Assembly (NCBI GenBank): GCA_944324475.1
Contig: CALUWK010000001.1
Span: 1-64,000 of the forward strand
Length of the DNA: 64,000 nucleotides
Reading direction: 5' to 3'
Source of the DNA: Candidatus Gastranaerophilales bacterium
GTDB lineage: Bacteria; Cyanobacteriota; Vampirovibrionia; Gastranaerophilales; Gastranaerophilaceae
Each line of letters starts with the position of its first letter. Position 1 is the first letter of the stretch. Shown in pieces: positions 268 through 60,395 of the stretch. The notes under the pieces were generated by a model. The model was not told the DNA's origin. It saw only the letters and a list, made by a program, of their open reading frames with translations, and ran no database searches. The position numbers and the translations under genes are program-made.

Positions 268-354
268 AGAGATGTGTCCGAGTGGTTTAAGGTGCAGTCC
301 TGGAACGACTGTGCGGGGGTGACTCCGCCAAGGGTTCGAATCCCTTCATCTCTG
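268..354 (+). tRNA. tRNA-Ser (anticodon GGA)
   Basis: The acceptor arms AGAGATG (268-274) and CATCTCT (347-353) pair, followed by discriminator G354. The anticodon stem CAGTC/GACTG encloses the loop CTGGAAC, giving anticodon GGA (reads UCC/UCU). A long variable arm is present, as expected for a class II serine tRNA, and the T-arm has GGTTCGAATCC. CCA is not encoded. A protein-like reading frame passes through the gene and continues directly after its 3' end; see the next entry. Confidence 0.97.
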
Positions 355-648
355 AATTTTAAAAAACCTCTAACTCGTGAAAAAATTCTTTCTTTAATAA
401 AAGGAGAATTATCGAGTGCAAAAATTTTATATGCAACAAAAGAGGAACTATTAGACATCCTTGTAAATGAACAAAAAGAAAAAATTTCTAATGAATTTAT
501 CAGACTAAACAATCAAACAGTTGATGAAAAAATAAGTGAAATTTTTGATTTTATTGAAGTAATTACAAATATCTTAGATAAAAAACAAGCCACAATTGCA
601 CTTCAAACAGGCTTGGGATTATTAAATAAATCAAAAAGCAAATTATGA
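355..648 (+). pseudogene. Start-less ORF joined to the tRNA-Ser 3' end (5'-truncated gene remnant)
   Basis: The open frame between the tRNA 3' end and the stop at 646-648 encodes about 97 charged, helix-rich residues ending LLNKSKSKL. The frame has no ATG or GTG, and its only TTG is near the 3' end. The only upstream ATG lies inside tRNA-Ser. I read this as the 3' part of a gene whose 5' end was lost when a recombination joined it to the tRNA, as happens with tRNA-targeted integrative elements. No family recognised. A non-canonical ATT start cannot be excluded. Confidence 0.4.
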
Positions 649-658
649 AGGTCGACAA

Positions 659-742
659 ATGGGTAAAAATTTTCCTAATGGAATTTGTGGAGATATGCTA
701 GAATATAAAAAACCAAAACAAAATATAAAGGTCAGTAAATGA
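659..742 (+). CDS. 27-residue ORF, possible remnant of a larger gene
   Basis: A short frame begins MGKNFPNGICGD. It overlaps the start of the next gene through ATGA (739-742), which would allow translational coupling. The leaders of this ORF and the next gene share the pattern AAGGTC-N4-AATG, so both starts may have been made by a local duplication. It may be the surviving C-terminus of a longer protein, for example a toxin tail next to a membrane partner; that reading is speculative. Confidence 0.3.
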   Translation: MGKNFPNGICGDMLEYKKPKQNIKVSK

Positions 743-1218
743 ATATAATAAAATTTTTTCTTAAATTTTTTCAAATTATTTTCAATTTATTAATTTCATC
801 TATTATAATTTTATGGCTCACATATCTTGGAAGTTATATATTAAATTTTAAAATAATTAATTTTCAAATAATTATTCATTATATTTTAGCTATTATTTTA
901 ATGGTTTGTTTGTGGTGGAATTTGTTTAAAAAGATTAAATTGTATAAATTAATCATAGTAATTATTTTATTCTTGTCTTCAGTTTTTTTACCAAGGATTA
1001 CTGATTTATTAGATTTTTCAAATAGCTATGAAGATAAAAATCTTAATTTAATTGAAATAAAAAAATTTATTAATACCGACGTTTGTCTAGATAGCGGATT
1101 ATGCGCTGAAAATTTAGAAGTTAATACAGAATATGGTTTAATTAAAATTAATAAAGAAAATTGCCTAAAATACAATTGGAAATGGGATGAAAAAAAGAAA
1201 CACTGTAATTTAAACTAA
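739..1218 (+). CDS. Hypothetical multi-pass membrane protein with Cys-containing C-terminal tail
   Basis: 159 residues. Three or four hydrophobic segments fill roughly residues 5-100. A soluble tail of about 55 residues follows with four cysteines (DVCLDSGLCAE, ENCLKYNWKW, KKHCNLN). The tail looks like a small extracytoplasmic or disulphide-stabilised domain. I do not recognise a named family. The gene overlaps the 27-residue ORF by 4 nt and lies in the patch behind tRNA-Ser. An immunity-type membrane protein is one possibility, but nothing here proves it. Confidence 0.6.
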   Translation: MNIIKFFLKFFQIIFNLLISSIIILWLTYLGSYILNFKIINFQIIIHYILAIILMVCLWWNLFKKIKLYKLIIVIILFLSSVFLPRITDLLDFSNSYEDKNLNLIEIKKFINTDVCLDSGLCAENLEVNTEYGLIKINKENCLKYNWKWDEKKKHCNLN

Positions 1219-1262
1219 AATTAAACAGCTTGGTAAAAGCTAAAAGACAATATTTTATACAA

Positions 1263-1838
1263 TTAATTACTAAAAGGCACAAAATTTAAATCATCATCCA
1301 AGATACCCTTTTCTTTAAACAATATCCACATTCCGCAAAAACCGCTTAGATTTTCAGCTCTATTTTTATAAGAATGATATTTATCGCCAACTGCAATTAA
1401 ACAAAGTAAATAAGGAGGACAATTTTTTTTATAGACTTCTTTTAAAAATTCGTCTTCTTTTTTTCTATATTTTTCCCATTCTTTTTGAGAATTTAATAGT
1501 AGATGATATTGTTTTTTAGAAATTAAATATTTTGCAGCTTCAAGTGACCTATTTATTTCGATTTTATATTTTTCAATTCCTTTAAGAGAACATTGCATCA
1601 TATCATAATCAGTTTCATAATTGGTGTTCAAGCATTCTTGAACACCTTTATCAATTTTTTTAAGCTCATCTTGAGAAGCAAAATCCGCCTTTGAAAAATC
1701 AATTTCAACTTGATATGGATATTTTAAATTTAAATAAATGTTTTCTATTTTTTTCTTAATAGAATTTCTAACCTTGGGAAATGATAGTGGAATTGCATAA
1801 ATAAGAACAATAATTGTGATTGTAATAATCTTTTTCAT
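1263..1838 (-). CDS. Membrane-anchored LprI/DUF1311-like protein
   Basis: 191 residues. An N-terminal hydrophobic segment (about residues 3-20) acts as a signal or anchor. From about residue 65 there is a helical domain of the DUF1311/LprI type: ECLNTN, then MMQCSLKGIEKY, then LLNSQKEWEKYRKKEDEF, then a C-terminal Cys. Family members are periplasmic or lipid-anchored, and some inhibit lysozyme. The function here is inferred from family only. The start is a probable leaderless ATG: TATAAT lies 6 nt upstream and there is no Shine-Dalgarno. Confidence 0.6.
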   Translation of the reverse strand: MKKIITITIIVLIYAIPLSFPKVRNSIKKKIENIYLNLKYPYQVEIDFSKADFASQDELKKIDKGVQECLNTNYETDYDMMQCSLKGIEKYKIEINRSLEAAKYLISKKQYHLLLNSQKEWEKYRKKEDEFLKEVYKKNCPPYLLCLIAVGDKYHSYKNRAENLSGFCGMWILFKEKGILDDDLNFVPFSN

Positions 1839-1844
1839 AGGATT

Positions 1845-1850
1845 ATTATA
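1845..1850 (-). promoter_or_regulatory. -10 element of a predicted leaderless promoter
   Basis: On the minus strand a perfect TATAAT ends 6 nt before the ATG at 1838. Transcription would start at or next to the A of the start codon. No AGGAG-like sequence lies between. Confidence 0.55.
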
Positions 1851-1879
1851 TTTAAAATTTAAGAATAAGTAAAAGTTTT

Positions 1880-2218
1880 TTACTTTCTATACCAAGGTTT
1901 AAATTCTTCAATTTCATCAAATAAATTGCAATAATCTCCCTTAAAACAAATACATCTATCATCAATATAAAGATATGAGGATAATTTTGTATTAGTTACA
2001 TCTTTAAAAAATTTATCTAAATTATTATTAATTAGCCATTTTGTTGCAAGCATTAAATTTCTTGATGTAAAAAGATATAATTCAGCTTGTTTTGATAATT
2101 TTTCTATAAATTCATAAGCTCCAATTTTAATTTCAGGAATGTAATTTTCATTGAATTTATCTTTTCCATATTCATTTAATACGCCATCTAAATCTATAAG
2201 TATTTTTTTGGTGAACAT
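1880..2218 (-). CDS. Small HAD-family phosphatase (module 1)
   Basis: 112 residues, a minimal HAD fold. Motif I is IDLDGVL with Asp9 and Asp11, motif II is LFTSR (Thr51/Ser52), a candidate motif III Lys is near residue 78, and motif IV is YIDDR (Asp86/Asp87). All catalytic acidic residues are present, so it is probably an active Mg-dependent phosphatase. Small HADs with the IDDR and C-terminal FKPW pattern resemble phage-type nucleotide or polynucleotide phosphatases; the substrate is unknown. It is transcribed divergently from an HTH regulator across about 58 nt. A copy about 88% identical sits at 58885-59220, and a broken one at 59973-60115. Confidence 0.75.
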   Translation of the reverse strand: MFTKKILIDLDGVLNEYGKDKFNENYIPEIKIGAYEFIEKLSKQAELYLFTSRNLMLATKWLINNNLDKFFKDVTNTKLSSYLYIDDRCICFKGDYCNLFDEIEEFKPWYRK

Positions 2219-2225
2219 AAGCTAT

Positions 2226-2269
2226 TTGTCCGTCTTACAGTTTGTCTATATTGTCATTATAGCGGACAA
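2226..2269. promoter_or_regulatory. Operator/promoter region of HAD-HTH module 1 (TTGTC half-sites)
   Basis: TTGTCCG (2226-2232) is the reverse complement of CGGACAA (2263-2269). Further TTGTC half-sites start at 2242 and 2251. The pair TTGTC (2251) to GACAA (2269) brackets the -10-like TATAGC (2258-2263), which is 13 nt before the regulator ATG. This fits an autoregulatory operator shared by the divergent HAD and HTH genes. TATAGC-13-ATG recurs in module 2. Confidence 0.55.
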
Positions 2270-2276
2270 TTTAATT

Positions 2277-2489
2277 ATGGACAAGGTTTTATTACAAAAA
2301 TTAGCAAACCGTATAAAAGAGTTAAGAAAACTGCACAAATATACTCAAGACGATTTAGCTGATTTAGCCCAAATTGCACGCTCAACCTTGGGTAATATTG
2401 AAACCGCACAAAACGATATAACATTCTCAAAATTAAATAAAATTGCCAAAGCCTTTGATTTATCACTAGCTGAATTTTTAAATTTTTAA
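2277..2489 (+). CDS. Cro/C1-type HTH regulator (module 1)
   Basis: 70 residues, essentially one HTH_XRE domain: IKELRKLHKYTQDDLADLAQ (scaffold and helix 2), then IARSTLGNIE (recognition helix), then ITFSKLNKIAKAFDLSLAEF. The ATG at 2277 is chosen because it fits the family N-terminus; reading further upstream would run into the HAD gene. No Shine-Dalgarno lies in the short leader. It likely represses itself and the divergent HAD gene through the TTGTC sites. Its last 15 codons and 3' flank are identical to those of the regulator at 60183-60395. Confidence 0.8.
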   Translation: MDKVLLQKLANRIKELRKLHKYTQDDLADLAQIARSTLGNIETAQNDITFSKLNKIAKAFDLSLAEFLNF

Positions 2490-2498
2490 ATCATCACA
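2442..2498 (+). repeat. 57-bp exact repeat, copy 1 (3' end of HTH gene plus flank)
   Basis: This stretch, from ATTGCCAAAG to AAATCATCACA, is identical base for base to 60348-60404, about 58 kb away. It covers the last codons of the regulator, the stop codon and some untranslated sequence. Recent duplication or gene conversion between the two HAD/HTH loci is the simplest explanation. Confidence 0.85.
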
Positions 2499-2574
2499 CT
2501 TCCTCAATTCAATTATAAAATTATTTCCGTTCATAATTTACTAATGAATTATAACATGAATATATTGCATTTTG

Positions 2575-2641
2575 CACTAAAAATTTAAGTGTATAAATAG
2601 GGTATATAAATAATCAAAAATTGCACTTAATATAAAGAGTG
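2575..2641 (+). promoter_or_regulatory. Candidate operator pair for the RHH gene
   Basis: Two CACT/AGTG inverted repeats precede the gene: CACT 2575-2578 with AGTG 2588-2591, and CACT 2624-2627 with AGTG 2638-2641. Both sit in the context TTGCACT. The second overlaps the Shine-Dalgarno region. Tandem short inverted repeats suit an Arc/MetJ-type ribbon-helix-helix autoregulator. Inferred from sequence only. Confidence 0.4.
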
Positions 2642-2649
2642 AGGTGAAT

Positions 2650-2823
2650 ATGTTTAAAGTCGAAAAAACGGAAATGACAAATAAAACATTCAGATTACCT
2701 TTAAAATTAGTGCAAGAATTACAAACAATAGCACAAAATAAAGGGGTATCTCTTAATAATTTAGTGCAACAATGTTGCGAGTATGCCATTAAACATTTAG
2801 ATAAAAATACAGATAAACTTTAA
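2650..2823 (+). CDS. Ribbon-helix-helix (Arc/CopG-like) DNA-binding protein
   Basis: 57 residues, with GAGGTG as ribosome site upstream of the ATG at 2650. The N-terminal strand is NKTFRLPLKL. Two helices follow: VQELQTIAQN, then the turn KGVSLNNLVQQCCEYAIKHL. This is the classic Arc/MetJ pattern of strand, helix, GxSLN, helix. Such proteins bind DNA as dimers, often as antitoxins or plasmid regulators. No partner toxin gene follows; the next gene is the SulP transporter. It lies between two HTH-derived sequences, so the patch is rich in small regulators. Confidence 0.7.
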   Translation: MFKVEKTEMTNKTFRLPLKLVQELQTIAQNKGVSLNNLVQQCCEYAIKHLDKNTDKL

Positions 2824-2828
2824 TATAT

Positions 2829-2852
2829 CGATAGTTTAACTACTAACAATTT
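2829..2852 (+). promoter_or_regulatory. Leader of the SulP gene resembling the HTH-module leader
   Basis: The near-palindrome TAGTTTAACTA (2832-2842) is followed by CTAACAATTT and the ATG at 2853. The stretch CTAACAATTT also precedes the ATG of the HTH gene at 59288, and ACAATTTA precedes the HTH gene at 2277. No Shine-Dalgarno is present. It appears to be the operator and leader of a former HTH regulator gene that now drives the transporter. Confidence 0.45.
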
Positions 2853-4475
2853 ATGGATAAATTATTATTACAAAAATTAGGCAATCATATAAAAAAACTA
2901 AACACAATTAAAGGTGATTTTTTTGGCGGAGTTATTGCAAGTATAATTGCATTTCCGCAAGCTCTTGCTTTTGGTGTAGCATCAGGACTTGGCGCAGTCG
3001 CAGGGGTTTGGGGTGCTATAATTCTATCATTTGTTACAGCTCTTGTGGGTCTAAATTGTCCTGTAATATCAGGGCCGACAGGTCCGAGCGCTATAATTAT
3101 TGCTCATATTTATGCACTTATGAGCGGTGATATTTCAAGCGTGTTTTTGATTTTAGCGTTTAGCGCAATAATTCAGATGATAATATCAATAACTTCAATC
3201 CCATCATTAATAAAATATATCCCATATCCTGTAATATCAGGGTTTTTAAGCGGTATAGGCATAATAATTATAATATTGCAAATTTCTCCGATTTTAGGAG
3301 GTGAAAATTATTCATCAGTATTAATTGCGCTAAAAAATATACCTTTATGTATTCAAAATATTAATTTTGATGCGGTTTTATTGGGTTTTATTTCTCTTTT
3401 GATTGTATTTTTAATTCCAAAGAAAATTTCAAAATATGTCCCATCGCAAATTATAGCCTTGATTTTAGGCAGTTTAATTTGTTATTATTTTAATTTTGAA
3501 GCAGATAAAATTTCTGCTATTACTTTTGAAATTCCAAAATTTGCACTTCATAATTTTAATTTTTCGATTTTATCAAATTCATTAGCAATAGCTTTATCAA
3601 TATCATTCGTTTTAACCTCCGAAAGCCTTTTAACAGGGCTTGTTATGGAATCTTTAGCTAAGAAAAAATATAACCCTAAAAAACTTGTTTTTTCTCAAGG
3701 TTTGGGAAATTTAATTTGTTCATTTTTTGGTGTTATGCAGGGTTCTGCTGCGACTATGAGAAGTGTTGCGGCGTATAAGGCGGGTGCAACTACAAAATTA
3801 AGTGCAATTTTTTCTTCTTTAATATTATTAATTGCCTTATATAAATTTTCTTTTTTGATTTCTCAAATTCCAATATGCACTCTAAGCGCTATTTTAATTA
3901 AAATCGGATATGATATTTTAGATTTAAAAATATTTAAGATAATAAAACACGCACCAAAAGATGATGTTTTAACTTTATGTATAGTTATATTTTTAACTGT
4001 TTTTTATAATTTAATTTTTGCAATTATTACAGGTATCGTTTTAGCTTCAATTCTTTATGCTAAAAGAATAGCCGATAATACAAATATTAAAGAAACATAT
4101 AATCCTGAAGGTTATAGCTTAGATGAAGCAAAAGCAGAAAAAGAATCACACTATAAAATCAGAATTTTACATATAGACGGGCAATTTTTCTTTGGTTCAA
4201 TCAGCCAAATTGTTTCTCATTTTGATGAAATGCTTGGTGTTGAATATATAATTTTAACGTATCCTAATTTTCATAAATTAGATATGTCAGCTATATTTGC
4301 TCTTGAAGATATAATTTTGAGGCTTGATGCGCAAAAGATAAAACTTTGTTTTGTGACTCCTTTTGATGAAATATATAACCAGCTTGAAGCTATTAAAAAA
4401 GAGGGTTTTGATTTGTTGTTATATAAAAATGAACAAGAAGCAATAGATTTTGCACTTGAGAATATTAAAAGTTAG
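2853..4475 (+). CDS. SulP-family anion transporter with STAS domain and HTH-derived N-terminus
   Basis: 540 residues. The membrane domain (about 20-400) has SulP signatures such as GDFFGGVIAS, IAFPQALAFG and SGPTGPSA. A C-terminal cytoplasmic STAS domain (about 425-535) includes LHIDGQFFFG and LDMSAIFAL. The family exchanges or symports inorganic anions (sulfate, bicarbonate) or dicarboxylates; the substrate cannot be read here. The first 17 residues (LLLQKLGNHIKKL) match the N-terminus of the HTH regulators at 2277 and 60183 in protein and DNA, while typical SulP sequence begins only after them. The gene looks like a fusion of a regulator 5' end with a transporter body. Confidence 0.88.
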   Translation: MDKLLLQKLGNHIKKLNTIKGDFFGGVIASIIAFPQALAFGVASGLGAVAGVWGAIILSFVTALVGLNCPVISGPTGPSAIIIAHIYALMSGDISSVFLILAFSAIIQMIISITSIPSLIKYIPYPVISGFLSGIGIIIIILQISPILGGENYSSVLIALKNIPLCIQNINFDAVLLGFISLLIVFLIPKKISKYVPSQIIALILGSLICYYFNFEADKISAITFEIPKFALHNFNFSILSNSLAIALSISFVLTSESLLTGLVMESLAKKKYNPKKLVFSQGLGNLICSFFGVMQGSAATMRSVAAYKAGATTKLSAIFSSLILLIALYKFSFLISQIPICTLSAILIKIGYDILDLKIFKIIKHAPKDDVLTLCIVIFLTVFYNLIFAIITGIVLASILYAKRIADNTNIKETYNPEGYSLDEAKAEKESHYKIRILHIDGQFFFGSISQIVSHFDEMLGVEYIILTYPNFHKLDMSAIFALEDIILRLDAQKIKLCFVTPFDEIYNQLEAIKKEGFDLLLYKNEQEAIDFALENIKS

Positions 4476-4537
4476 AGTGGCAACTTATTTTATTTTTTAT
4501 TTTTGTATGTGTGTTACATGAAGGAAGGTAGGAATTT

Positions 4538-4789
4538 ATGAATATCAATGAGTTATCTTTAAGTTTTGGAAAAACACCTATGTTTGTTAAGGAAAAATTT
4601 AGAGTTGAAAATGACTTTTATGCGAAAGAAAGCTATGTAAATATTAATGATATAGCTAATTTAGAAAAAATTTCAGATAATAATTGGGAAGCAATGTCCG
4701 TAAGTGGTTTAAAAGACTTAGGCAGAAGGGCTAAAATTTATCATTTTGATAATGAGGGTGCGCAACAAATTCTAAATTATATGGCTTAA
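4538..4789 (+). CDS. Hypothetical protein, 83 residues
   Basis: A strong ribosome site (GAAGGAAGGTAGG) precedes the ATG. The protein is soluble and charged, beginning MNINELSLSF, and has no signal peptide or membrane segment. I do not recognise a family. It follows the transporter by 62 nt and is the last plus-strand gene before a minus-strand block, so it may be its own unit. Confidence 0.6.
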   Translation: MNINELSLSFGKTPMFVKEKFRVENDFYAKESYVNINDIANLEKISDNNWEAMSVSGLKDLGRRAKIYHFDNEGAQQILNYMA

Positions 4790-4836
4790 AATATAAAACT
4801 TATATTATATATCATTGAAAAATTAACAGAGTATAT

Positions 4837-5208
4837 TTATTCGCCATACCACATAATTTCAACAGCATAATCTGGTGCATCAACTAAAGCACCAAATTTT
4901 GAATATTCCATGTTGGCTTTTTCATAAGTTTTTTGGCTTGGAAATATTTTAGATAGCATTTTCAATCCCGCTGCTAAAATTGCTCCAATACCTGCATATT
5001 TAATAATTGAGCGGTTTGCGCCTCTTGCTTGGGTTGCTGTATTTGATACAAATTTGTCTATTGCGTCTTTGTTAAACATAGAAGAAAGTTCTGATTTTGT
5101 AGGTAATAAATAGCGTGCACCTGCACCTGCAATAGCACCTGCACTTGCAGTAAGAGCATATTTGCCATAGTTATTTTTTTGTTCAGTTGAATTTACTCTT
5201 TGAATCAT
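4837..5208 (-). CDS. Hypothetical membrane protein with two glycine/alanine-rich segments
   Basis: 123 residues from the ATG at 5208, which is preceded by GTGAAG. A longer TTG-started version is possible but less likely. Two small-residue-rich hydrophobic stretches (ALTASAGAIAGAG near residues 18-35, and YAGIGAILAAGLKML near 70-88) could be membrane helices. The C-terminal 30 residues are soluble. No known family recognised. Related-looking small Gly/Ala membrane proteins occur elsewhere in the window (for example 39990-40865). Confidence 0.55.
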   Translation of the reverse strand: MIQRVNSTEQKNNYGKYALTASAGAIAGAGARYLLPTKSELSSMFNKDAIDKFVSNTATQARGANRSIIKYAGIGAILAAGLKMLSKIFPSQKTYEKANMEYSKFGALVDAPDYAVEIMWYGE

Positions 5209-5385
5209 AATCTTCACACTTTCTTCACAAGATAATCGTGTCAACTAGCACTTTGAGCCATGACACTAACTATTTTCTACTCATCTTGATTTGGTAAAAA
5301 AAATCAAATCATTTGTCTATAAAATTTGTAATTCCCTAACCGATTTCACAAATTTTTTCTATTTTATCATATAAAGATTATTATG

Positions 5386-5664
5386 TCAAGATTTATATAA
5401 AAATTTTTTTGTTTTTTCTATATTATTTTTAATTAATTCAATTTTATCTTTTTTTATGAGATTTTTAATTCTATATTCTTCTTTTAAGGCAGCGGATTTG
5501 TCTTTTAAATCTGTTATATAGACTATTTCTTTAGGTTTATGGCATTTTAAATATTTTGCTCCTTTGCCTTCAAGATGTTGTTTAAATCTTTTAAATACAT
5601 CTTTCGTAATTCCGCAATATAGTGTATTATCAATCGTTTGAATTATGTATAGAAAGTATTTCAT
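5386..5664 (-). CDS. GIY-YIG nuclease domain protein (UPF0213-like)
   Basis: 92 residues. The N-terminal core is YIIQTIDNTLYCGITKD, where YII and YCG stand for the GIY-YIG motif. It is followed by RFKQHLEGKGAKY and later a conserved Glu (KEEYRIKNLIKK). This small stand-alone family acts on DNA ends or branched DNA, though the exact role of UPF0213 proteins is unclear. It starts inside the 3' end of dusB (35-nt overlap), so the two are co-transcribed. Confidence 0.85.
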   Translation of the reverse strand: MKYFLYIIQTIDNTLYCGITKDVFKRFKQHLEGKGAKYLKCHKPKEIVYITDLKDKSAALKEEYRIKNLIKKDKIELIKNNIEKTKKFLYKS

Positions 5665-6607
5665 CCAATACCTTTATAATTTCTTTTTCATTTTCTAATC
5701 TTACAAGTAAACATCTGTATTTTGAAGCATTTTTAATAGAAGAAATATAATAGTTATAAAATTTTCGCATAAATTTAATGCCATTAATTTCGCCCATATT
5801 TCTAATTTCAAGGTACAGGTGTTCTTTTAACATTTTAATTTTTTGGTTTAAATCAGGTTCTTTTATTTCTATTCCTTCATTTAGATATTTTTCAATCCGA
5901 TATGGAAGTGTAAAATCGCCCATAATGCCCCTACCGATTGAAACACCGTCGCATTTTGTTATTTCAAGGCATTTTTTGGCATCCTCAAGACTTTTAATAT
6001 CTCCGTTTGCAAAAACGGGAATTTTTAGTTCTTTTTTTAAAAGTTCTATTTTTCCCCAGTCGGCATGACCTTCATACATAGCATTTCTTGTTCTTGCATG
6101 GAGTGTTATAAAATCAGCACCTGCATTTTCCATAATTTTTGCAAATTCAATGTAGTTTTCTTCATTTTTTGACCAACCGAGTCTGCATTTTACACTGACA
6201 GGTAGTCCGATCGCATCTTTTATTGATTTTAGTATGTCTGAAGCAAGTTTTGGAGTTTTCATCATGGCGGAGCCGTCGCCTGAAACAACAACTTTTTTAA
6301 CTGGACAACCGCAATTAATATCAATCATGCTGGCATAAGGGGCGACAATTTTTGCAGCAGAGGTCATTTTATCAATTTTGTGACCTACTAATTGAAAAGC
6401 AAGAGGATATTCAAATTCTTCAAATTGTATAATTCTTGGATTAGGATTATTGCACAACATTTCTGACGAAATCATTTCTGTTGTCATTAAACATTTTGAA
6501 CCGTATTTTCTAATTAAGCCACGAAAAACAACATCAGAAATCCCTGCCAGTGGTGCTTGAATAACTTTAATTTCGTTTATGTTAATTTTTTTATTTTTTG
6601 AGGGCAT
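5630..6607 (-). CDS. dusB: tRNA-dihydrouridine synthase (DusB type)
   Basis: 325 residues, the full length for the family. It reduces uridine to dihydrouridine in the tRNA D-loop using FMN and NADPH. Landmarks: the FMN-binding start QAPLAGISD (18-25), catalytic Cys101 in NCGCPVKKV, the substrate-site HARTR, and the TIM-barrel end SIGRGIMGD. The ATG lies inside the 3' end of the TPR gene (17-nt overlap) and the stop overlaps the GIY-YIG gene, so the three genes form a tight unit TPR-dusB-GIY. Confidence 0.93.
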   Translation of the reverse strand: MPSKNKKININEIKVIQAPLAGISDVVFRGLIRKYGSKCLMTTEMISSEMLCNNPNPRIIQFEEFEYPLAFQLVGHKIDKMTSAAKIVAPYASMIDINCGCPVKKVVVSGDGSAMMKTPKLASDILKSIKDAIGLPVSVKCRLGWSKNEENYIEFAKIMENAGADFITLHARTRNAMYEGHADWGKIELLKKELKIPVFANGDIKSLEDAKKCLEITKCDGVSIGRGIMGDFTLPYRIEKYLNEGIEIKEPDLNQKIKMLKEHLYLEIRNMGEINGIKFMRKFYNYYISSIKNASKYRCLLVRLENEKEIIKVLDEILSIHNSND

Positions 6608-8741
6608 TTAGATAATCTTTTAGTTCCTTAATTCTTGACGTTGCAAAATTGGTCATTTCATCTTTTTCAACTCCCTTTAGGGAAATAAATTTTTCATAAT
6701 TTAAAACAGCTTCTTTATAATTTTCGCTATTATCTAAATTTACTGCAAGAGAATAGTATGCGGAAGCAAAATTAGGATTCTTTGAAATTAATAATTTATA
6801 TTGTTTAATTGCTTCTTGTGGTTTTTTAAGTTCATCCAAACATAAACCTTTGTAATATATTCCATATTCATCATTTGGATTTTTAGATAAAAACTTATTT
6901 AAAGTTGTTAAAGATTCGTTGAATAGCCCTTTTTCATATTGATCTATAGCATTTTGCAATAATTCTGATGTTTCTTGTTCATTAATATTATCAAGAATGT
7001 TTTTTGCATCTTGGTTTGAGTTATTTAAAGCAAGAATTTTATTTGCGGTTATTTTTGCGTTTTGAATGTCATTTAATGAATAATATGCCCAAGCGCTACT
7101 TGTGAGCACTTCAATATCATTTGGTTCTTTTGATAAAACTTCAAGATAATATTTATTTGCGTTTTTGTAATCATTCATTTGCCAATAGCAGCTAGCAATA
7201 GCAAGGTTTACTTCTTTTGTTTTGTTTTGAATTTTTGAATATTCATTGATTGCTTGAGTGTATTTTTTTTCGTTGAATAATTTTGTAGCAGTTTCATATT
7301 GCGTATTTGCACTTAGCGCTTTAGAGTCATCCAGATATTTTTTTAATTCTGTGCTATTTGGAATTATCATTAATCCTTTTTCACAAATTTGATTTGCTAA
7401 GGGAAAGTTTTTTTGTTCTATGTATATTTGTGCTAAATTTAAATAAGTTTCTTCTTTTGATGGGTTGATATTTTGAGCTTTTTTATAGTATTCAATAGCC
7501 CCTGCATAATTTTTATTTTTATGTAATTCAAGAGCATAATTAAATTGTGCTTCATAATTTGAAGGGTTAGAATTTGCTTTTGCAAGAAGATAAGTTTGTA
7601 ATTTTTGACCTGAAAAATGATTTAAAATTATATCATCGGCTAAATTTCTTGCGTTTTTATTGTTTGGTTCTATAGCAAGAATCTTATCATATTGCTTTAA
7701 AGCTTCGTCATATCTTTGTAATTTTTTTAGAGCATCGGCTTTGTATTCAAGAACTTCAATATTATTTGATTTTTTTAAGAGTAATTTATCATATATGCTT
7801 ATTGCTCCTTGGTAGTTTTTTTGTTCTATATATAAAGATGCAAGATTATATAAACTTGTGTCATCCGAGCTATCTAAAGCTGCGGCTTTTAGATATTGTG
7901 TTTTTGCTGCTTCGAAATTTCCTTGTTTTTGATATATTGCTCCTAAATTAATATAACTTTGAGCATCGTTTGGGTTATTAACAATATTTTGAGTCCATTT
8001 GTTTTCGAGAATTTCCAGAAGTTCGGGACTTTTGTCTCCATATTTTAAGGCAAGATTGTATTGTTCCATGCTTGCTTCATAGTTTTTTGCTTCATCAAGC
8101 ATAACGCCGTATAAAAAGTGAAGTTTTGGATTTTCAGGGTTAAAACTTATTGCGTCTTTAAAATAATCCATAGCGCAGGACAAATTATTTAAGTTTTTAT
8201 ATATATTTCCAAGGTTTTCGTAAGCAGTTTCTTTATATTGGCCAGTTTTTAAAAGTTGAAAATCATATCCTGAAGCAGCAAGTTCACCTTGAGCTTTTAG
8301 AGTTTTTGCATTTTGCAAACGTGCAGATTGATTTTGAGCAACAGAGAGTCTTTTTTCAAGACTGTTTATTTCGTTTATTGCGTTATTTGCAAGAGATTGC
8401 ATAGATTGAGATGGAGATGTTTGTTTCCAATATTTTGCATAAAATACCGCGCTTTTGTAGTCGTTTAGAGCTTTTTTGTATTCTTTTGTTCCGCTTTTAT
8501 ATTGCTGTGCTCTTGCAAGATAAGCATTTGCAAGTTTCTCTTGTATTGTTTCATCGTAAGGAGAAAATCTTAAAACTTTTCGAAATTCAATAATTGCCGA
8601 GCTATATTGTTGATTTTTTAGGTATTCCATACCATTCGAGTAATATGCAGAGTATCTTTGTATATCTTCTTGTGAAATTTCTGCTGCGGTTACATTAAAA
8701 AATAAAAATGCCGCGAGGATAATTATAACTTTTTTCTTCAT
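6591..8741 (-). CDS. Large secreted tetratricopeptide-repeat protein
   Basis: 716 residues. A signal peptide (KKVIIILAAFLFFNVTAAE) is followed by many 34-residue TPR units with the usual W/L-G-Y-A-F-P spacing, for example YEAQFNYALELHKNKNYAGA and YYSLAVNLDNSENYKEA. A non-TPR helical stretch around residues 110-150 may be coiled coil. TPRs are scaffolds for protein contacts; in the periplasm they often assemble envelope or secretion machinery. There are no catalytic motifs. It is the first gene of the unit with dusB and has the ribosome site AAAGGG. Confidence 0.85.
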   Translation of the reverse strand: MKKKVIIILAAFLFFNVTAAEISQEDIQRYSAYYSNGMEYLKNQQYSSAIIEFRKVLRFSPYDETIQEKLANAYLARAQQYKSGTKEYKKALNDYKSAVFYAKYWKQTSPSQSMQSLANNAINEINSLEKRLSVAQNQSARLQNAKTLKAQGELAASGYDFQLLKTGQYKETAYENLGNIYKNLNNLSCAMDYFKDAISFNPENPKLHFLYGVMLDEAKNYEASMEQYNLALKYGDKSPELLEILENKWTQNIVNNPNDAQSYINLGAIYQKQGNFEAAKTQYLKAAALDSSDDTSLYNLASLYIEQKNYQGAISIYDKLLLKKSNNIEVLEYKADALKKLQRYDEALKQYDKILAIEPNNKNARNLADDIILNHFSGQKLQTYLLAKANSNPSNYEAQFNYALELHKNKNYAGAIEYYKKAQNINPSKEETYLNLAQIYIEQKNFPLANQICEKGLMIIPNSTELKKYLDDSKALSANTQYETATKLFNEKKYTQAINEYSKIQNKTKEVNLAIASCYWQMNDYKNANKYYLEVLSKEPNDIEVLTSSAWAYYSLNDIQNAKITANKILALNNSNQDAKNILDNINEQETSELLQNAIDQYEKGLFNESLTTLNKFLSKNPNDEYGIYYKGLCLDELKKPQEAIKQYKLLISKNPNFASAYYSLAVNLDNSENYKEAVLNYEKFISLKGVEKDEMTNFATSRIKELKDYLNALKK

Positions 8742-8814
8742 CCAATAACCCTTTTAATATACCTATTTTATTATACAACAATTTTTAATGATTAAAACAG
8801 AATTTCGGGTAATT

Positions 8815-9579
8815 CTATATTAAAGGAATTTTAATAAATTCATCTGCTGTAAAAGCTAAAAAAGCCTCACAATAGTTGCAATTATGTTGTATTGAACGAA
8901 AAGCATTTATACCGATTATTCTATTAACAAGCTCAGGAAATTTGTCTTCAGGATAGTACATTTTAAGCATTTTTTTCTTTGTTTCAATAATTGAACTAAT
9001 ATCAATGTAATAATCTAAAGTGCATAAAGGAAAGTCCGATTCATACATTAAAATTTTTAAATCAGGTTTAAATTCTTTATCTTTTAATATTTGTTTAAAA
9101 TGTTGCAAAAGAGATATTGTATCAATATTGTTATCGTAAATGTTGGGTATAAAAATATAGTCTACTTCCGATATATCTATTTTTTTGAATGTTGCATAAT
9201 GGTTTTTTAGAGTTTTATTGTCTATGTCAAAAATTTTAAAACCTTTTGTGCGAGTTAATTTCATTACTTCTGTAAATTGTTGTTTTTTAATAGAAGCAGA
9301 CTCGAAGGGATTTAAGTTTGGAATCATGTTTGAGCCGTTTGTGAGGCATAAAACTTCAAAGTTTTTTGGATATTGAGCAATTAAACCACCTAAACCTTTA
9401 GTTTCTGCTCCTGGATATTGTGAAAAAACAAGACATTTAGTGTCTATGTTGATTTTAAATTCACCAAAGCGACTTTTTAAACCAAAAAGAAAATAAAAAA
9501 TAAATTTATTGTAATTTATTTTTTTGATTATATCTGTTTTTTTGATGAAATCAATTATCTTTCTTTTTATGTTAACCAT
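8815..9579 (-). CDS. PIG-L/LmbE-like protein lacking the usual metal-binding motif
   Basis: 254 residues. The pattern LVFSQYPGAETKGLGGLIA, then FEVLCLTNGSN, sits where PIG-L deacetylases have the PHPDDE motif, a GG-liA helix and a vvvLTdG strand. In this protein HPDD is replaced by YPGA, leaving only the Glu. The C-terminal part (KKKMLKMYYPEDKF, then AFRSIQHNCNYCEAF) resembles the end of the family fold. PIG-L enzymes deacetylate GlcNAc-type sugars with zinc; with the ligands missing, this may be inactive or use another chemistry. Assignment by pattern only. Confidence 0.55.
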   Translation of the reverse strand: MVNIKRKIIDFIKKTDIIKKINYNKFIFYFLFGLKSRFGEFKINIDTKCLVFSQYPGAETKGLGGLIAQYPKNFEVLCLTNGSNMIPNLNPFESASIKKQQFTEVMKLTRTKGFKIFDIDNKTLKNHYATFKKIDISEVDYIFIPNIYDNNIDTISLLQHFKQILKDKEFKPDLKILMYESDFPLCTLDYYIDISSIIETKKKMLKMYYPEDKFPELVNRIIGINAFRSIQHNCNYCEAFLAFTADEFIKIPLI

Positions 9580-9670
9580 TTAATCCATCTTTCCGAAAAA
9601 GATTATATCATAAATAATTCCTATATTAGGATTATTGTAAATTTTAGTTAATTTTTATAGAGTATAGTTT

Positions 9671-10363
9671 ATGGTTAAATGTCGTGCGTTTTCAGTGATA
9701 GAATTTATTACGACAATTTCTGCTTTGATAGCTGTAGTTGTTTTAATTAGTCCTTTTTTTAATAAGCTTTCAAAAGCAGAAAGAACTGCTTTAACTTTAA
9801 AAGATGTATATGAAACAATTAATTCTACTGTTAAAAGATATGAAAGGTATGATGAGCCTTGTCAAACTTGGGGTTGGAGCGCACCGGACACTTATGAAAT
9901 TTCAAAATATATTTTGGATAAATATATTGTTCCTTCTTTTTCAAATTATACATCTTGTAGTAACCCATTGTTGTGTGTTGGCGGTTTTTTATCAATGGAT
10001 GGTGAAGATTATACAAATTACAGACAAAGAGAAGATTATGCAAGAGCGCTTGTTGGTAAAAAGAAAGTTCATATAGCTTTAAGGTCAACAGGAAGTTGTG
10101 TTATGGATGCTGCTGATAATTTATGTGGAATTTTGGTCGTGGATGTAGATAATAAAGATGGTGAAAACAAACTTGGTTATGATGTTTTTGTATTTGGTTT
10201 TTACGGTGACGGTAAGTTTATGCCTTTTGGGTATAATTTTTCAAAAGAAGATATAGAAAAAAATTGCTCTAAATATTCTTATGGTGAAACTTGTGCTGCT
10301 AAAATAATGAATAATAATTGGGTTATAAATGAATTGCCAAAGGAAGAAGATTATTTTGAATAG
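9671..10363 (+). CDS. Type IV pilin-like (minor pseudopilin) protein
   Basis: 230 residues. The N-terminus has a short positive leader, then A/FSVIEF with Glu at +5 and a hydrophobic helix (ITTISALIAVVVLISPFF), which is a class III prepilin signal with Ala instead of Gly at -1. The globular part has paired cysteines (TSCSNPLLCVGG, GSCVMDAADNLCG, NCSKYSYGETC) and a DVDNKDGENKLG segment like those in pseudopilins. It would be processed by prepilin peptidase and placed in a pilus tip or type II-like secretion pseudopilus. No pilus assembly genes lie in the window. Confidence 0.75.
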   Translation: MVKCRAFSVIEFITTISALIAVVVLISPFFNKLSKAERTALTLKDVYETINSTVKRYERYDEPCQTWGWSAPDTYEISKYILDKYIVPSFSNYTSCSNPLLCVGGFLSMDGEDYTNYRQREDYARALVGKKKVHIALRSTGSCVMDAADNLCGILVVDVDNKDGENKLGYDVFVFGFYGDGKFMPFGYNFSKEDIEKNCSKYSYGETCAAKIMNNNWVINELPKEEDYFE

Positions 10364-10408
10364 CAATTTTTCTATAAAAAAATACTTTATATATGTAAGA
10401 TAGAATAA

Positions 10409-10417
10409 TGATATAAT
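10409..10417 (+). promoter_or_regulatory. Extended -10 promoter, predicted leaderless
   Basis: TGaTATAAT (TATAAT at 10412-10417) ends 7 nt before the ATG at 10425. There is no Shine-Dalgarno and no good -35, as expected for an extended -10 promoter. Confidence 0.55.
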
Positions 10418-10424
10418 TTGTATT

Positions 10425-10595
10425 ATGAAAAAGGATAAGATAATTTTTTTAAAAGAAAAAAATATAAAAAAAATAGCAGAAAAGAACTATGATGAAATGC
10501 GCAGCTCTGGATATGCACAAAATCCTATAGCTGCAAAGTTGCTAGCTTTTCAAAAAACAAAGAGGAATATTGACTCAAAAGATTTGTTGGAATAA
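10425..10595 (+). CDS. Small basic protein, 56 residues
   Basis: The frame begins MKKDKIIFLK and ends SKDLLE. It is rich in Lys and soluble. Its stop and the next start share TAATG (10593-10597), so the two are translationally coupled. It sits in front of the 167-residue hypothetical gene and prmC. Composition might suit a nucleic acid or ribosome contact, but no family is recognised. The start is set by the extended -10 immediately upstream. Confidence 0.55.
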   Translation: MKKDKIIFLKEKNIKKIAEKNYDEMRSSGYAQNPIAAKLLAFQKTKRNIDSKDLLE

Positions 10596-11098
10596 TGCAA
10601 AATATTAAAAATAGTGTGTTTTTATATTTAACCCCGCGCCAAAAGTCACAGCTTTTAGGTACTTTAAAGTCTTATTTTAAGAAATTTTCTGATTTATCTG
10701 AGAATGATTTAGTTTCAAAATTTTTGGAAGATGAAAAATATTATATTGAAATTAAAAATCCTCATTTTGAGTTTGTTGAACAATATTTGGATGATAATAT
10801 GTTTTTTAGCGATATAGTTAAGTTTTTTAAATATTGCGCTTGGGAAAAACGCGAGCTTGAATTGCTAGAACCATATAAACAAAAAGAAAAAGAATACGCT
10901 AAACTTCAGAGAAAAAAAGTTTCTGATTATAAGATGTCTAAATTAAAACCAACTAAAAAACAAATTATGTATTATGATAAATTAACAAAAGCCCATGGTG
11001 TTGAAAAAAAAGATATTGAAAATGCAAGCAGGCTTGATTTAAAAAATTGGATAATGGAAATAATAGAAAAAAATGAATGCAATAATAAAACAAGTTGA
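10595..11098 (+). CDS. Hypothetical protein upstream of prmC
   Basis: 167 residues, helical and charged, with no signal peptide. The middle contains a Lys/Glu-rich helix (EPYKQKEKEYAKLQRKK). The C-terminal 50 residues (KPTKKQIMYYDKLTKAHGVE, then ASRLDLKNWIMEIIEK) resemble the small helical tail seen in many phage and regulatory proteins (DUF3072-like/SAP-like pattern). Its 3' end overlaps prmC by 26 nt, so it is in the prmC operon. Function unknown. Confidence 0.6.
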   Translation: MQNIKNSVFLYLTPRQKSQLLGTLKSYFKKFSDLSENDLVSKFLEDEKYYIEIKNPHFEFVEQYLDDNMFFSDIVKFFKYCAWEKRELELLEPYKQKEKEYAKLQRKKVSDYKMSKLKPTKKQIMYYDKLTKAHGVEKKDIENASRLDLKNWIMEIIEKNECNNKTS

Positions 11099-11912
11099 AA
11101 AAATATTATTCAACGCAGGAATTGAAGAATATAAACAAGAGGCAAAGCTTATTGTTGAAAGCATTTCAGGGCTTTCATTAGATAAAATTATAGCGGGTTT
11201 TGAAATAAGAAATATTGATAAAATTATTGAAATTGCTCAAAAAAGGGCAGAGTCAAAAGTACCTGTTCAATATATACTTGGTTTTTCATATTTTATGGGT
11301 GAAAAATATATCGTTAATAAAGATGTTTTAATTCCAAGAGATGAAACTGAAATTTTAGTTATAGAATGTTATAAATTATTGAAAGATAGAAATAAGAAAA
11401 TTGATATTTTAGATATTGGTGTGGGTTCAGGTTGTATTAGTTGTGCTTTAGCAAAAAAACTTATTGATAAAGATATTGAAATATTGGCTGTTGATATAAG
11501 TTCTGAAGCAATTAAGATTGCTCTTGAAAATGCAGATAAATTAGATTTAATAAGAAAAATTGTTTTTAGAAAGTCTGATGTATATTCTAAAATCAGAGAT
11601 TTTGAAAAATTTGATTTAATTGTTTCAAATCCACCTTATATTCCTATAGCTGAAAAATGCAATTTGCAGAAGGAAGTTTGTTTTGAACCAAAGGTTGCGC
11701 TTTTTGCAACTGATATTGAAGGTGTGGAATTTTATAAAAAAATTATAAAGGATGCTTATAAGTTTTTAAAAATTGGTGGATTTTTAGCTTTTGAAATTGG
11801 AATTAATCAAGCAGATATAGTTAGGGATTTGTTGATTGAGAATAATTTTAAAAATATTAAATTAATAAAAGATTTAGCAAATATTACTAGGGTAGTTATT
11901 GCCCAAATATAG
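11073..11912 (+). CDS. prmC: Release factor glutamine N5-methyltransferase
   Basis: 279 residues. It methylates the Gln of the GGQ motif in peptide release factors. Domains: an N-terminal helical bundle (1-80), then a Rossmann methyltransferase with the entry motif PRDETE (88-93), the AdoMet loop DIGVGSG (114-120) and the catalytic NPPY (186-189). Length is normal. The release-factor gene is not adjacent. The start overlaps the preceding gene. Confidence 0.94.
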   Translation: MNAIIKQVEKILFNAGIEEYKQEAKLIVESISGLSLDKIIAGFEIRNIDKIIEIAQKRAESKVPVQYILGFSYFMGEKYIVNKDVLIPRDETEILVIECYKLLKDRNKKIDILDIGVGSGCISCALAKKLIDKDIEILAVDISSEAIKIALENADKLDLIRKIVFRKSDVYSKIRDFEKFDLIVSNPPYIPIAEKCNLQKEVCFEPKVALFATDIEGVEFYKKIIKDAYKFLKIGGFLAFEIGINQADIVRDLLIENNFKNIKLIKDLANITRVVIAQI

Positions 11913-11987
11913 ACTTATGGATAATGTTCTTTTTTGAAAAATGTAGCAAAATAAAATATCGAGTTTATTATTTCAAAGGAGAAAAAA

Positions 11988-12452
11988 ATGAGATTTAGTG
12001 TAATAAAAAGAGAACCTTCATATTTTTTTGAAAATATTCATGAGGATTTAAATAGGTTTTTGAAAGATACATTTGGTGAACTTCCTTATGCAGAAAAGGA
12101 AATGTTGTCTGTTTATAAAGCTTTTCGTCCTGCTATAGAAGTTAAAGAAAAAAAGAATGAATATAAAATAAAAGTAGAACTTCCTGATGTTAAAAAAGAA
12201 GATATTGATGTTGAACTAAAAGAAAATTCGATTTCTATTTCTGCCGAGACAAAGTTTGAAGAATGTAAAGAAGAGGAAAATCTTAAAACTTCAGAATTCA
12301 GATATGGTAAATTTAGTCGTGTTATTCCTTTTGAACATCAAATAAATCCGGATAATGCAAAATGTGAATATAAAAACGGTGTTCTGCATATTCAATTACC
12401 AAAATTACACGAAGATAAAAAAGATGACATTAAAAAACTAAAAGTAGACTAA
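11988..12452 (+). CDS. Hsp20/alpha-crystallin small heat-shock protein
   Basis: 154 residues with ribosome site AAAGGAG. The alpha-crystallin domain spans about 45-145: AIEVKEKKNEYKIKVELPDV, KKEDIDVELKENSISISAE, FRYGKFSRVIPFE, then YKNGVLHIQLPK, which includes the family motif NGVLxIxLPK. It holds unfolding proteins until ATP chaperones act. No HrcA (CIRCE) palindrome is visible upstream. It is monocistronic and ends at a strong terminator shared with rpe on the other strand. Confidence 0.92.
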   Translation: MRFSVIKREPSYFFENIHEDLNRFLKDTFGELPYAEKEMLSVYKAFRPAIEVKEKKNEYKIKVELPDVKKEDIDVELKENSISISAETKFEECKEEENLKTSEFRYGKFSRVIPFEHQINPDNAKCEYKNGVLHIQLPKLHEDKKDDIKKLKVD

Positions 12453-12493
12453 ATGCCTTAATCTTTTGATATCATGATTTCTTAATATATAAT

Positions 12494-12550
12494 AAACCAC
12501 CTTAAAAAGAACTTATGCCTTGACATTTAGGTGTAAGTTCACGGTGGTTT
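12494..12550. terminator. Bidirectional terminator between hsp20 and rpe
   Basis: AAACCACC (12494-12501) pairs with GGTGGTTT (12543-12550). Inside it GAACTTA pairs with TAAGTTC, making a long nested hairpin. T-runs lie on both outer sides. It separates convergent genes, and the rpe stop codon begins at its last base. Confidence 0.7.
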
Positions 12551-13188
12551 TATTTTTTTAATAATTCTATTGCATTTTGAATGTTTTTAGATTTGTATAT
12601 GTAATTTCCTGCAACAAGAGAATTTGCTCCTAAAGATGTGCATAATTTGCCTGTTAAATCATTGATTCCGCCGTCTATTTGGATAATTAAATCATTTTTG
12701 CAGGATAATTTTTTAATATCAGTAATTTTATAAGCACAATTTTCCATAAATTTTTGTCCGCCAAACCCAGGTTCAACTGTCATGATAAGGATTACATCAC
12801 ATAAATTAATATAATCTTTTATTTCATTTGGATTCGTATTTGGTTTAATTGAAAGACCTGCTTTTTTACCTTTATTTTTAATTTGTTCAATTATTTTTGG
12901 AGTTTTATCCCTTGCTGCTTCATAATGAAAAGTAATTAAATCAGACCCCGCGTCAATAAAAGCATCAATATATTTTTCAGGGTTTTGGATCATCAAGTGT
13001 ACATCAAAAAATAAATTTGTGATTTTTCTTATTGATTTAATAACGGGTATTCCTATAGAAATATTTGGAACAAAATGTCCGTCCATTACATCAATATGTA
13101 TCCAAGGAACATAGGGTTCAATTTTTTTAATTTCTTTTTCTAAATTTGCAAAATCACAAGATAAAATTGATGGTGAAATTATTGTCAT
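12550..13188 (-). CDS. rpe: Ribulose-phosphate 3-epimerase
   Basis: 212 residues, the usual length. It interconverts ribulose 5-phosphate and xylulose 5-phosphate. Landmarks: SILSCDFANLEKEI, the metal-site HIDVMDGHFVPN, FDVHLMIQNP, MTVEPGFGGQ and the phosphate loop IQIDGGI. It is the last gene of pyrH-frr-cdsA-rnc-rpe, and its start overlaps rnc by 4 nt (ATGA type). Confidence 0.95.
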   Translation of the reverse strand: MTIISPSILSCDFANLEKEIKKIEPYVPWIHIDVMDGHFVPNISIGIPVIKSIRKITNLFFDVHLMIQNPEKYIDAFIDAGSDLITFHYEAARDKTPKIIEQIKNKGKKAGLSIKPNTNPNEIKDYINLCDVILIMTVEPGFGGQKFMENCAYKITDIKKLSCKNDLIIQIDGGINDLTGKLCTSLGANSLVAGNYIYKSKNIQNAIELLKK

Positions 13189-13922
13189 TTTATTACCTTC
13201 AAATTAATAAGTGCATCTTTAGCCGCATTTTGTGAGGCTTCTTTAATACTTTTTGCGCTGCCTTTTCCTATAATCTCATCTTTGTAGCTTACTTCAATAA
13301 AAAAGGTTTTTTCGTGTTCTTTGCCTTCTTCTTTTATGAGTTTATATTTGGGTAATTCTTTTGATATGCTTTGAGTGTATTCTTGAAGCATAGCTTTTGG
13401 GTTTAGAGTATCGATTTTTTCATTGATTGAGTTAATTTCATCTTCAAAATTTTTTATTAAAAATTCTGATGCTTTTTTATAACCCTTTTCTTTATATTCA
13501 ATAAAAATCGCTCCCAAAAGAGCTTCAAAAGAGCAAGCTAATATAGATTCTTTTTTTGCTCCGCCCAGTTTTTTTTCGTTTTTTCCAAGTAGGATTAAAT
13601 CCTTAAAACCCAGTTTTTTTGCATAATTTGAAATATTTTTATCCGATATTATCTCTGCTCTTAGTTTTGTTAGTTCACCTTCTTTATAATTTTTAAATTT
13701 ATTATAAAAAAGACTGCTAATTGAAAGTTTTAGAACGGCATCACCTAGGAATTCAAGTCTTTCATATGAGTTTTCTATTCCTATATTATTTTCGTTTGTA
13801 TATGAAGTATGACAAAAGGCTTGATTTAAAAGGTTAATATTTGAAAAATTAAGATTATATTTTTGTTGAAATTCAAGGAGTTTTTTGTGTCTTTTCTCAC
13901 TTATGTTATTAGAAGTAGACAT
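13185..13922 (-). CDS. rnc: Ribonuclease III
   Basis: 245 residues. It cuts double-stranded RNA in rRNA and mRNA maturation. The catalytic signature ERLEFLGDAVLKL is at about 50-62, with the second acidic pair in the ILACSFEALLGAIFIEY region. A dsRNA-binding domain follows (about 170-240: NPKAMLQEYTQ, GKGSAKSIKEASQNAAKDAL). It overlaps cdsA by 14 nt and rpe by 4 nt. Confidence 0.95.
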   Translation of the reverse strand: MSTSNNISEKRHKKLLEFQQKYNLNFSNINLLNQAFCHTSYTNENNIGIENSYERLEFLGDAVLKLSISSLFYNKFKNYKEGELTKLRAEIISDKNISNYAKKLGFKDLILLGKNEKKLGGAKKESILACSFEALLGAIFIEYKEKGYKKASEFLIKNFEDEINSINEKIDTLNPKAMLQEYTQSISKELPKYKLIKEEGKEHEKTFFIEVSYKDEIIGKGSAKSIKEASQNAAKDALINLKVIK

Positions 13923-14817: not shown

Positions 14818-14818
14818 T

Positions 14819-15379: not shown

Positions 15380-15398
15380 TTATTTTCTCCTAAATTTT

Positions 15399-16121: not shown

Positions 16122-16199
16122 TTAACACCTTTTTCAAAATTTAAAAAATAATCTAAATCAATTATACACAAGTTTTTGTTAATGTGTAATAATTTAGTT

Positions 16200-18366: not shown

Positions 18367-18371
18367 TTTTA

Positions 18372-22903: not shown

Positions 22904-22980
22904 TATCTTTTAATGTAACAATCTCTCTATACTACGTTTTGATTTTATCAAAAAAAAATTAAAAGTGCACTTTTAATTTA

Positions 22981-60130: not shown

Positions 60131-60188
60131 ATTTTTGCACGCATGCAAAAAATAATTAAATAATAGCATTAAAATTGCATATATGCAA
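60131..60188. promoter_or_regulatory. Operator/promoter of module 3 (TTGCAT palindromes)
   Basis: Near-palindrome TTTTTGCACGCATGCAAAAA (60132-60151) and the perfect 14-bp palindrome TTGCATATATGCAA (60175-60188). The second overlaps the regulator start codon (ATG 60183-60185), so binding would block initiation directly. The operator word differs from modules 1 and 2. Confidence 0.6.
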
Positions 60189-60395
60189 AGCAATGAATTA
60201 CAAAAACTAGGCAATCATATAAAGAAACTTCGAAAAGAAAGAAAACTAACAATTAGCGCTTTATGCTATAAAAATGGGCTTGAACCTTCTACAATAAGCA
60301 GAATAGAAAAAGGTCAAATAGAACCTAAATATCTTACATTAATGAATATTGCCAAAGCCTTTGATTTATCACTAGCTGAATTTTTAAATTTTTAA
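60183..60395 (+). CDS. Cro/C1-type HTH regulator (module 3)
   Basis: 70 residues. NHIKKLRKERKLTISALCYK, then NGLEPSTISRIEKG and YLTLMNIAKAFDLSLAEF. Its N-terminal codons match the SulP 5' end, and its 3' end matches the module 1 regulator exactly. It still sits divergent from the decayed HAD, so it has lost its partner. No ribosome site; start chosen by family fit. Confidence 0.78.
   Translation: MQSNELQKLGNHIKKLRKERKLTISALCYKNGLEPSTISRIEKGQIEPKYLTLMNIAKAFDLSLAEFLNF

What the first reader, a model, noticed from the sequence alone, without database searches (positions are those of the whole stretch)
2853..2915. SulP transporter carries the promoter and first codons of an HTH regulator gene
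The SulP ORF starts MDKLLLQKLGNHIKKL. This matches the start of the regulators at 2277 and 60183; at DNA level about 31 of 33 bases match the 60183 gene around its LQKLGNHIKK codons. The CTAACAATTT leader also resembles that of the regulator at 59288. SulP sequence proper begins only after residue 17. A recombination event seems to have put the transporter under a regulator-type promoter and leader.
Basis: seen in the sequence. Interest (0 to 1): 0.72.

Follow-up and report, generated by a model that had tools for sequence, protein, structure and literature searches.

The report
Transporter gene with a regulator's start
In one uncultured gut bacterium a membrane-transporter gene has lost its own ribosome-binding site and start codon and now begins with the first codons of a neighbouring small regulator gene; a rare, clear snapshot of an otherwise known kind of accidental gene fusion.

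Summary
The SulP ORF (2853-4475) starts MDKLLLQKLGNHIKKL, and its only start codon lies in regulator-derived DNA. The five closest orthologues (80-98% identical) lack this start; they begin at TTG with a Shine-Dalgarno. 0 of 80 SulP homologues carry the regulator-like N-terminus. Window 2823-2880 is identical to the leader and first codons of an intact HTH gene (HTH-B) that follows the same ribbon-helix-helix-like (RHH) gene in relative G003. The next 8 bases match HTH-A (60183). Native SulP resumes at 2889 in a shared ATAAA.

This is an in-frame, microhomology-type junction that removed SulP's Shine-Dalgarno and TTG start and put the gene 29 nt behind an RHH gene. The likeliest route is a deletion inside a HAD-like/XRE/RHH module array upstream of SulP. 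A related module sits directly upstream of SulP in G001 and G003, and truncated HTH-B starts recur in relatives. The exact ancestral arrangement and a reciprocal product were not found, and only one metagenome assembly holds the junction. The kind of event (deletion-born fusion, leader capture) is known.

The parts
2853..4475 (+). SulP-family transporter ORF (540 aa, BicA-like by closest models); only in-frame ATG/GTG/TTG start is 2853
2823..2880 (+). Leader and first codons derived from an RHH-linked HTH-B gene; 58 of 58 identical to G003:C2
2881..2888 (+). GCAATCAT: tract matching HTH-A (60183 type), not HTH-B; shared TAG (2878-2880) on its left
2889..2893 (+). ATAAA shared by HTH-A and native SulP (11 bp with one mismatch): junction; native SulP coding from here on
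2650..2823 (+). RHH/Arc-like small gene directly upstream; good Shine-Dalgarno (-9.4 kcal/mol with a recalled anti-SD)
2277..2489 (+). Intact HTH-B gene (XRE, HTH_3) upstream of the RHH gene, with the 'CGGACAATTTAATT' type leader
1880..2218 (-). HAD-like gene divergent from HTH-B; protein 100% identical to the one upstream of SulP in G001 (DNA 96.8%)
60183..60395 (+). HTH-A gene, source type of the 8-nt tract

Best explanation
The SulP gene is the right-hand partner of an illegitimate, in-frame junction. Shown: its native Shine-Dalgarno and TTG start are gone and are replaced by the leader and first 9 codons of an HTH-B gene sitting behind an RHH gene, then 8 bases of an HTH-A-type gene, then native SulP from an ATAAA shared by both. 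Inferred: an array of HAD-like, XRE and RHH modules lay directly upstream of SulP in the same direction; a B/A hybrid HTH gene arose by recombination between paralogues; a deletion (or template switch) at the short shared sequence then removed the rest of that HTH gene and the SulP leader. Inferred consequence: SulP is now the second gene of an RHH operon and is translated from an SD-less ATG, so its amount should follow the RHH promoter rather than its old one. The transporter itself probably stays functional; the new tail is 12 residues before the native IKKL.
For: Orthologues G001, G003, G004, G020 (98, 98, 93, 91%) match only from residue 13 and all have TTGATAAAA starts; G024 (80%) is listed from residue 6 but also starts at a TTG. 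SD energy in these five is -5.1 to -6.1, in G000 +1.0, the same as G003 HTH-B. 2823-2880 is identical to G003 HTH-B. An intact RHH + HTH-B pair is present in G003 and G020; in G009 the B gene is cut at 29 aa. An HTH gene with a HAD-like gene (whole in G001, remnant in G003) lies directly upstream of SulP, same strand. Truncated HTH-B starts of 15, 29 and 31 aa occur in G003, G009, G020. The native leader is absent from G000. SulP is intact, with 13 synonymous and 2 non-synonymous G000-only codon changes in 528 codons.
Against: No relative shows the predicted pre-deletion order RHH - HTH - SulP. The left flank (ORF159, LprI-like, HAD-like) differs from the groEL-side flank of G001, so a larger rearrangement is also involved. 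groEL in G000 ends at the edge of contig C49, so the old flank cannot be traced. The HTH-A tract is 8 nt only. The junction is known from one metagenome assembly. The selection count includes time before the fusion.
Confidence: 0.68

Rival explanations
1. Larger rearrangement rather than a local deletion: recombination or insertion of an island (tRNA-Ser-like gene, ORF159, LprI-like, HAD-like, HTH-B, RHH, HTH start) broke into the SulP leader, bringing a foreign left flank with it.
For: Window 640-1923 and 2432-2894 are colinear with G003:C2, where the block ends in HTH-B next to a tRNA-like/dnaJ locus, not SulP. In G001 SulP is about 2.9 kb from groEL; in G000 groEL is not within the 2.85 kb held upstream.
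Against: No reciprocal product: no SulP leader in G000 and no orphan HTH-B 3' half among the listed G000 matches (its list was cut off). A HAD-like gene with 100% identical protein already lies upstream of SulP in G001.
Confidence: 0.3
2. Assembly chimera: the metagenome assembler joined a regulator contig to the SulP contig at a short repeat.
For: Single assembly. Contig C1 begins only 2.85 kb upstream. Module copies often lie near contig ends (4 of 11 stretches asked for were cut by a contig end).
Against: The overlaps are 3 and 5 bases, below any usual assembly k-mer (general knowledge), and the junction has three parts with an 8-nt middle piece. It is in frame and the ORF is intact.
Confidence: 0.1
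3. Chance resemblance: a native SulP N-terminus that happens to look like an XRE start.
For: XRE starts share a short lysine/leucine-rich pattern and the region is AT-rich.
Against: 395-bp homology runs through the leader into the codons. 0 of 80 homologues share it; the score lies beyond 1000 shuffles.
Confidence: 0.01

Closest known systems
Deletion-born fusion genes (Kaul et al. 2026 preprint, PMC12803068; abstract and discussion read)
   Same: Two gene pieces joined in frame, most simply by loss of the DNA between them; the authors note such junctions often lie at repeats.
   Different: Here nearly the whole transporter is kept, with few non-synonymous changes; the preprint reports no clearly beneficial new function. 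The pre-deletion state was not seen here.
Promoter capture / gene fusion in Pseudomonas fluorescens wrinkly spreaders (Lind et al. 2015 by recalled author name, PMC4395868; passages read)
   Same: Deletions make in-frame fusions of an upstream gene to a downstream gene and can change its transcription.
   Different: Natural, unselected case; transcription not measured; only about 12 foreign codons; no promoter found in the leader.
SulP transporter BicA (NCBIfam NF050096; PDB 6ki1, deposited as Low affinity sulfate transporter, recalled to be BicA)
   Same: SulP family; best solved relative by sequence, aligned from residue 17.
   Different: Score 313.7 is far below the BicA equivalog cut-off of 880, so the substrate is not known.

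Membership tests
Gene fusion by illegitimate recombination / leader capture | Start region of one gene joined to the body of another, with the native start region lost | tested here: met
Gene fusion by illegitimate recombination / leader capture | Short shared sequence at the junction | tested here: met
   TAG at 2878-2880 and ATAAA at 2889-2893 (11 bp with one mismatch, 2889-2899)
Deletion-born fusion | A related genome with both parents in the same order and the intervening DNA present | tested here: not met
   G001/G003 have a HAD-like + HTH module upstream of SulP, but a different HTH gene; RHH+HTH-B is elsewhere in G003
Promoter capture | New promoter drives the gene / changed transcription | not testable with these tools
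   No sigma-70-like site in the leader, 17 found against 17.1 expected in 2200-4700; transcripts not available
SulP family | Sulfate_transp and STAS domains | tested here: met
   PF00916 E 1.3e-55, PF01740 E 2.6e-9
BicA bicarbonate transporter | Score above the NCBIfam equivalog cut-off | tested here: not met
   313.7 against 880

The most novel reading that the evidence does not exclude
HAD-like/XRE/RHH modules in this genus are a shuffling unit whose deletion-prone starts are repeatedly left behind and can seed new genes or rewire neighbours; SulP has been captured into an RHH-controlled operon and is now regulated by a mobile-module repressor.
Probability: 0.22. Interest if true: 0.55.

Novelty: new member of a known kind. 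Interest (0 to 1): 0.36.

Why it matters
It gives a base-resolved natural example of a transporter swapping its ribosome-binding site and start codon for those of a regulator gene while staying intact. The papers read here describe such fusions mainly from experimental evolution, or as products without a clear function. It also points to a deletion-prone regulator module in an uncultured order that could be followed across strains.

Tried and rejected
Sought a reciprocal product in G000: the native SulP leader (no match with up to 3 mismatches) and an orphan HTH-B 3' half (listed G000 matches; that list was truncated): none seen. Sought the HTH-A-type codons in viral contigs: 0. Sought the B leader and A codons in 191 family genomes: matches only in the same genus (2 and 4 genomes; G009 and G020 were not in that draw). 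A first N-terminus test by regular expression ('80 0') was badly written, since it would not have matched the window itself; it was replaced, which includes the window as positive control. Inversion of the 3-59 kb segment was considered and dropped: the stretches compared are colinear with G001 and G004, though G002 has the groEL/SulP side and the 60-kb side on one contig in another arrangement, which I did not resolve. The shuffle test of CTAACAATTT is weak. Paper searches gave no report on this locus; two searches were broad term searches, paired the order's name with transporter and horizontal gene transfer.

Full report
WHERE. The window is the first 64 kb of contig C1 (153,743 bp) of an AT-rich 1.7-Mb genome, G000. 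G000 itself is not named by any search; that it is a metagenome assembly is inferred from its relatives and its 64 contigs.

OBSERVATION. ORF 2853-4475 encodes a 540-aa SulP protein with Sulfate_transp and STAS domains and begins MDKLLLQKLGNHIKKL. The frame opens after a TAA at 2844-2846, and ATG 2853 is the only ATG/GTG/TTG in the first 40 codons.

ORTHOLOGUES. In 97 related genomes 55 have a SulP match. The five closest (98, 98, 93, 91, 80% identity) start at a TTG preceded by an AAAGGA/GAGGAAA/AAGGA-type site, giving (M)IKKLNTIKGDFFGG or similar. Four of them match the window protein only from residue 13; the fifth (G024) is listed from residue 6, where its in-frame upstream sequence happens to read KLRNRLLIK, but most of that lies before its TTG. 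Of 80 SulP homologues from the species-level genome collection (one search found 111 and kept 80), none has an HTH-like N-terminus: best score 27 against 59 for the window, and shuffles of the window N-terminus reach at most 41 in 1000; best DNA match to the 37 regulator-derived bases is 23 of 37. The 80 include the same contigs as the five above.

PARENTS. A genus-wide search with 2500-2912 (28 genomes, 17 with some match) found the stretch 2500-2894 at 95% in G003 and G009 and 90% in G020, and up to 2864 at 91% in G004. In G003 and G020 it is an RHH-like gene followed by an intact HTH-B gene (MDKLLLQKLANRIKELRK... and a close variant); in G009 the B gene is cut to 29 aa. Column by column: 2823-2880 equals G003 HTH-B in 58 of 58 bases; 2867-2893 equals HTH-A (60183) in all but one base, but only 2881-2888 (GCAATCAT) separates A from B; from 2889 on the window equals G001 SulP over the columns shown. 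Shared bases at the joints are TAG and ATAAA (ATAAA[A/G]AAACT if one mismatch is allowed). HTH-A genes in the fetched loci carry another leader, so a hybrid HTH gene with B leader and A codons probably preceded the fusion; this is inference.

WHAT WAS LOST AND GAINED. Pairing of the 19 bases ahead of the start with a recalled anti-SD gives -5.1 to -6.1 kcal/mol for SulP in five relatives and +1.0 in G000, the same as the HTH-B gene of G003; the RHH gene has -9.4. So a TTG start with SD became an ATG without SD, 29 nt behind the RHH stop (2821-2823). Promoter-like sites in 2200-4700 number 17 against 17.1 expected, and none on the plus strand lies between 2567 and 3458. A captured promoter is therefore not shown; operon membership behind the RHH gene is the simpler reading, but no transcript data exist. 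Where G001, G003 and G004 agree, G000 alone has 13 synonymous and 2 non-synonymous codon changes in 528 codons, with 349 synonymous and 1235 non-synonymous sites; by my arithmetic a ratio near 0.04, so the protein is kept, although part of that time precedes the fusion.

CONTEXT AND MECHANISM. A HAD-like gene divergent from an XRE gene recurs at several loci. In G001 such a module, and in G003 its HTH gene with a HAD-like remnant (HTH MELKKKLGKRIQEL...), lies directly upstream of SulP on the same strand, flanked by two copies of the SulP leader (68-bp matches between the two genomes' left and right copies, 96-97% alike), while G004, G020 and G002 show one full-length leader match. The HAD-like protein upstream of SulP is 100% identical in G000 and G001 (DNA 96.8%), but G003 has an equally identical copy at another place. 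RHH + HTH-B lies at the 59-60 kb site in G004 and at a dnaJ locus in G003. In a scan of the fetched loci, 8 starts lie within 5 mismatches of the B leader codons: 3 lead into 70-aa HTH genes, 1 into SulP, 3 into ORFs of 15, 29 and 31 aa, and 1 into 2 codons (not inspected). The 15-aa one in G003 keeps both ends of an HTH gene with the middle gone. So small deletions that leave HTH starts behind are recurrent, and the G000 case is one that ended in frame in an intact gene. Against this: the left flank of G000 (ORF159, LprI-like gene) belongs to a block seen elsewhere in relatives, groEL of G000 ends at a contig edge, and neither the pre-deletion order nor a reciprocal product was found.

ARTEFACT? 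The junction is in one assembly and 2.85 kb from a contig end. Against a mis-join speak overlaps of 3 and 5 bases, a three-part mosaic and an intact in-frame ORF. I put this at about 10%.

COMPARISON. In-frame fusions and promoter capture by deletion are known from P. fluorescens (PMC4395868, passages), from tandem-duplication work (PMC11111574, passages) and as a general class in a 2026 preprint (PMC12803068, abstract and discussion), which says that no clear new beneficial function was identified for any of its fusions. The present case fits that class, except that the pre-deletion state is missing. Hence 'new member of a known kind', of moderate interest.

Noticed in passing
L032 about 18770-18837 and 19662-19728; L034 1346-1412 and 1958-2025: In G001 and G003 the SulP leader exists twice (about 68 bp, 96-97% alike between copies across genomes), flanking an inserted stretch with an XRE gene and a HAD-like gene or remnant just before the SulP start.
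   Followed up: partly
window 59976-60115; L040 1142-1210; L034 1403-1475: Remnants of the HAD-like gene that keep both ends but lack the middle, each beside an XRE gene; the same kind of internal loss is seen in an HTH-B gene (L130 from 8296).
   Followed up: partly
window 1880-2218 and 58885-59220: The HAD-like 112-aa protein has no Pfam match at E 0.001 and no solved relative by sequence; 24 of 28 genus genomes have a match. The HAD name rests on a recalled motif (DLDGVLN) and weak model hits.
   Followed up: partly
window 2650-2823: 57-aa Arc/RHH-like protein (phrog_582 E 1.1e-5), no Pfam match at E 0.001; related DNA in several genus genomes.
   Followed up: no
window 270-1840: A tRNA-Ser-like gene (not run through a tRNA finder) followed by island genes (159-aa membrane protein, LprI-like protein) found in pieces at other places in relatives.
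   Followed up: no
L037 about 9353-9742: SulP in G002 is a relic: residues 6-124 and a later piece with stops, but with a native-type leader.
   Followed up: no
window 2889-4474 against 4832-22937: SulP DNA is 95-97% identical to G001/G003 while the flank to the right is about 85% identical to G001, hinting at recent exchange of SulP between species.
   Followed up: no
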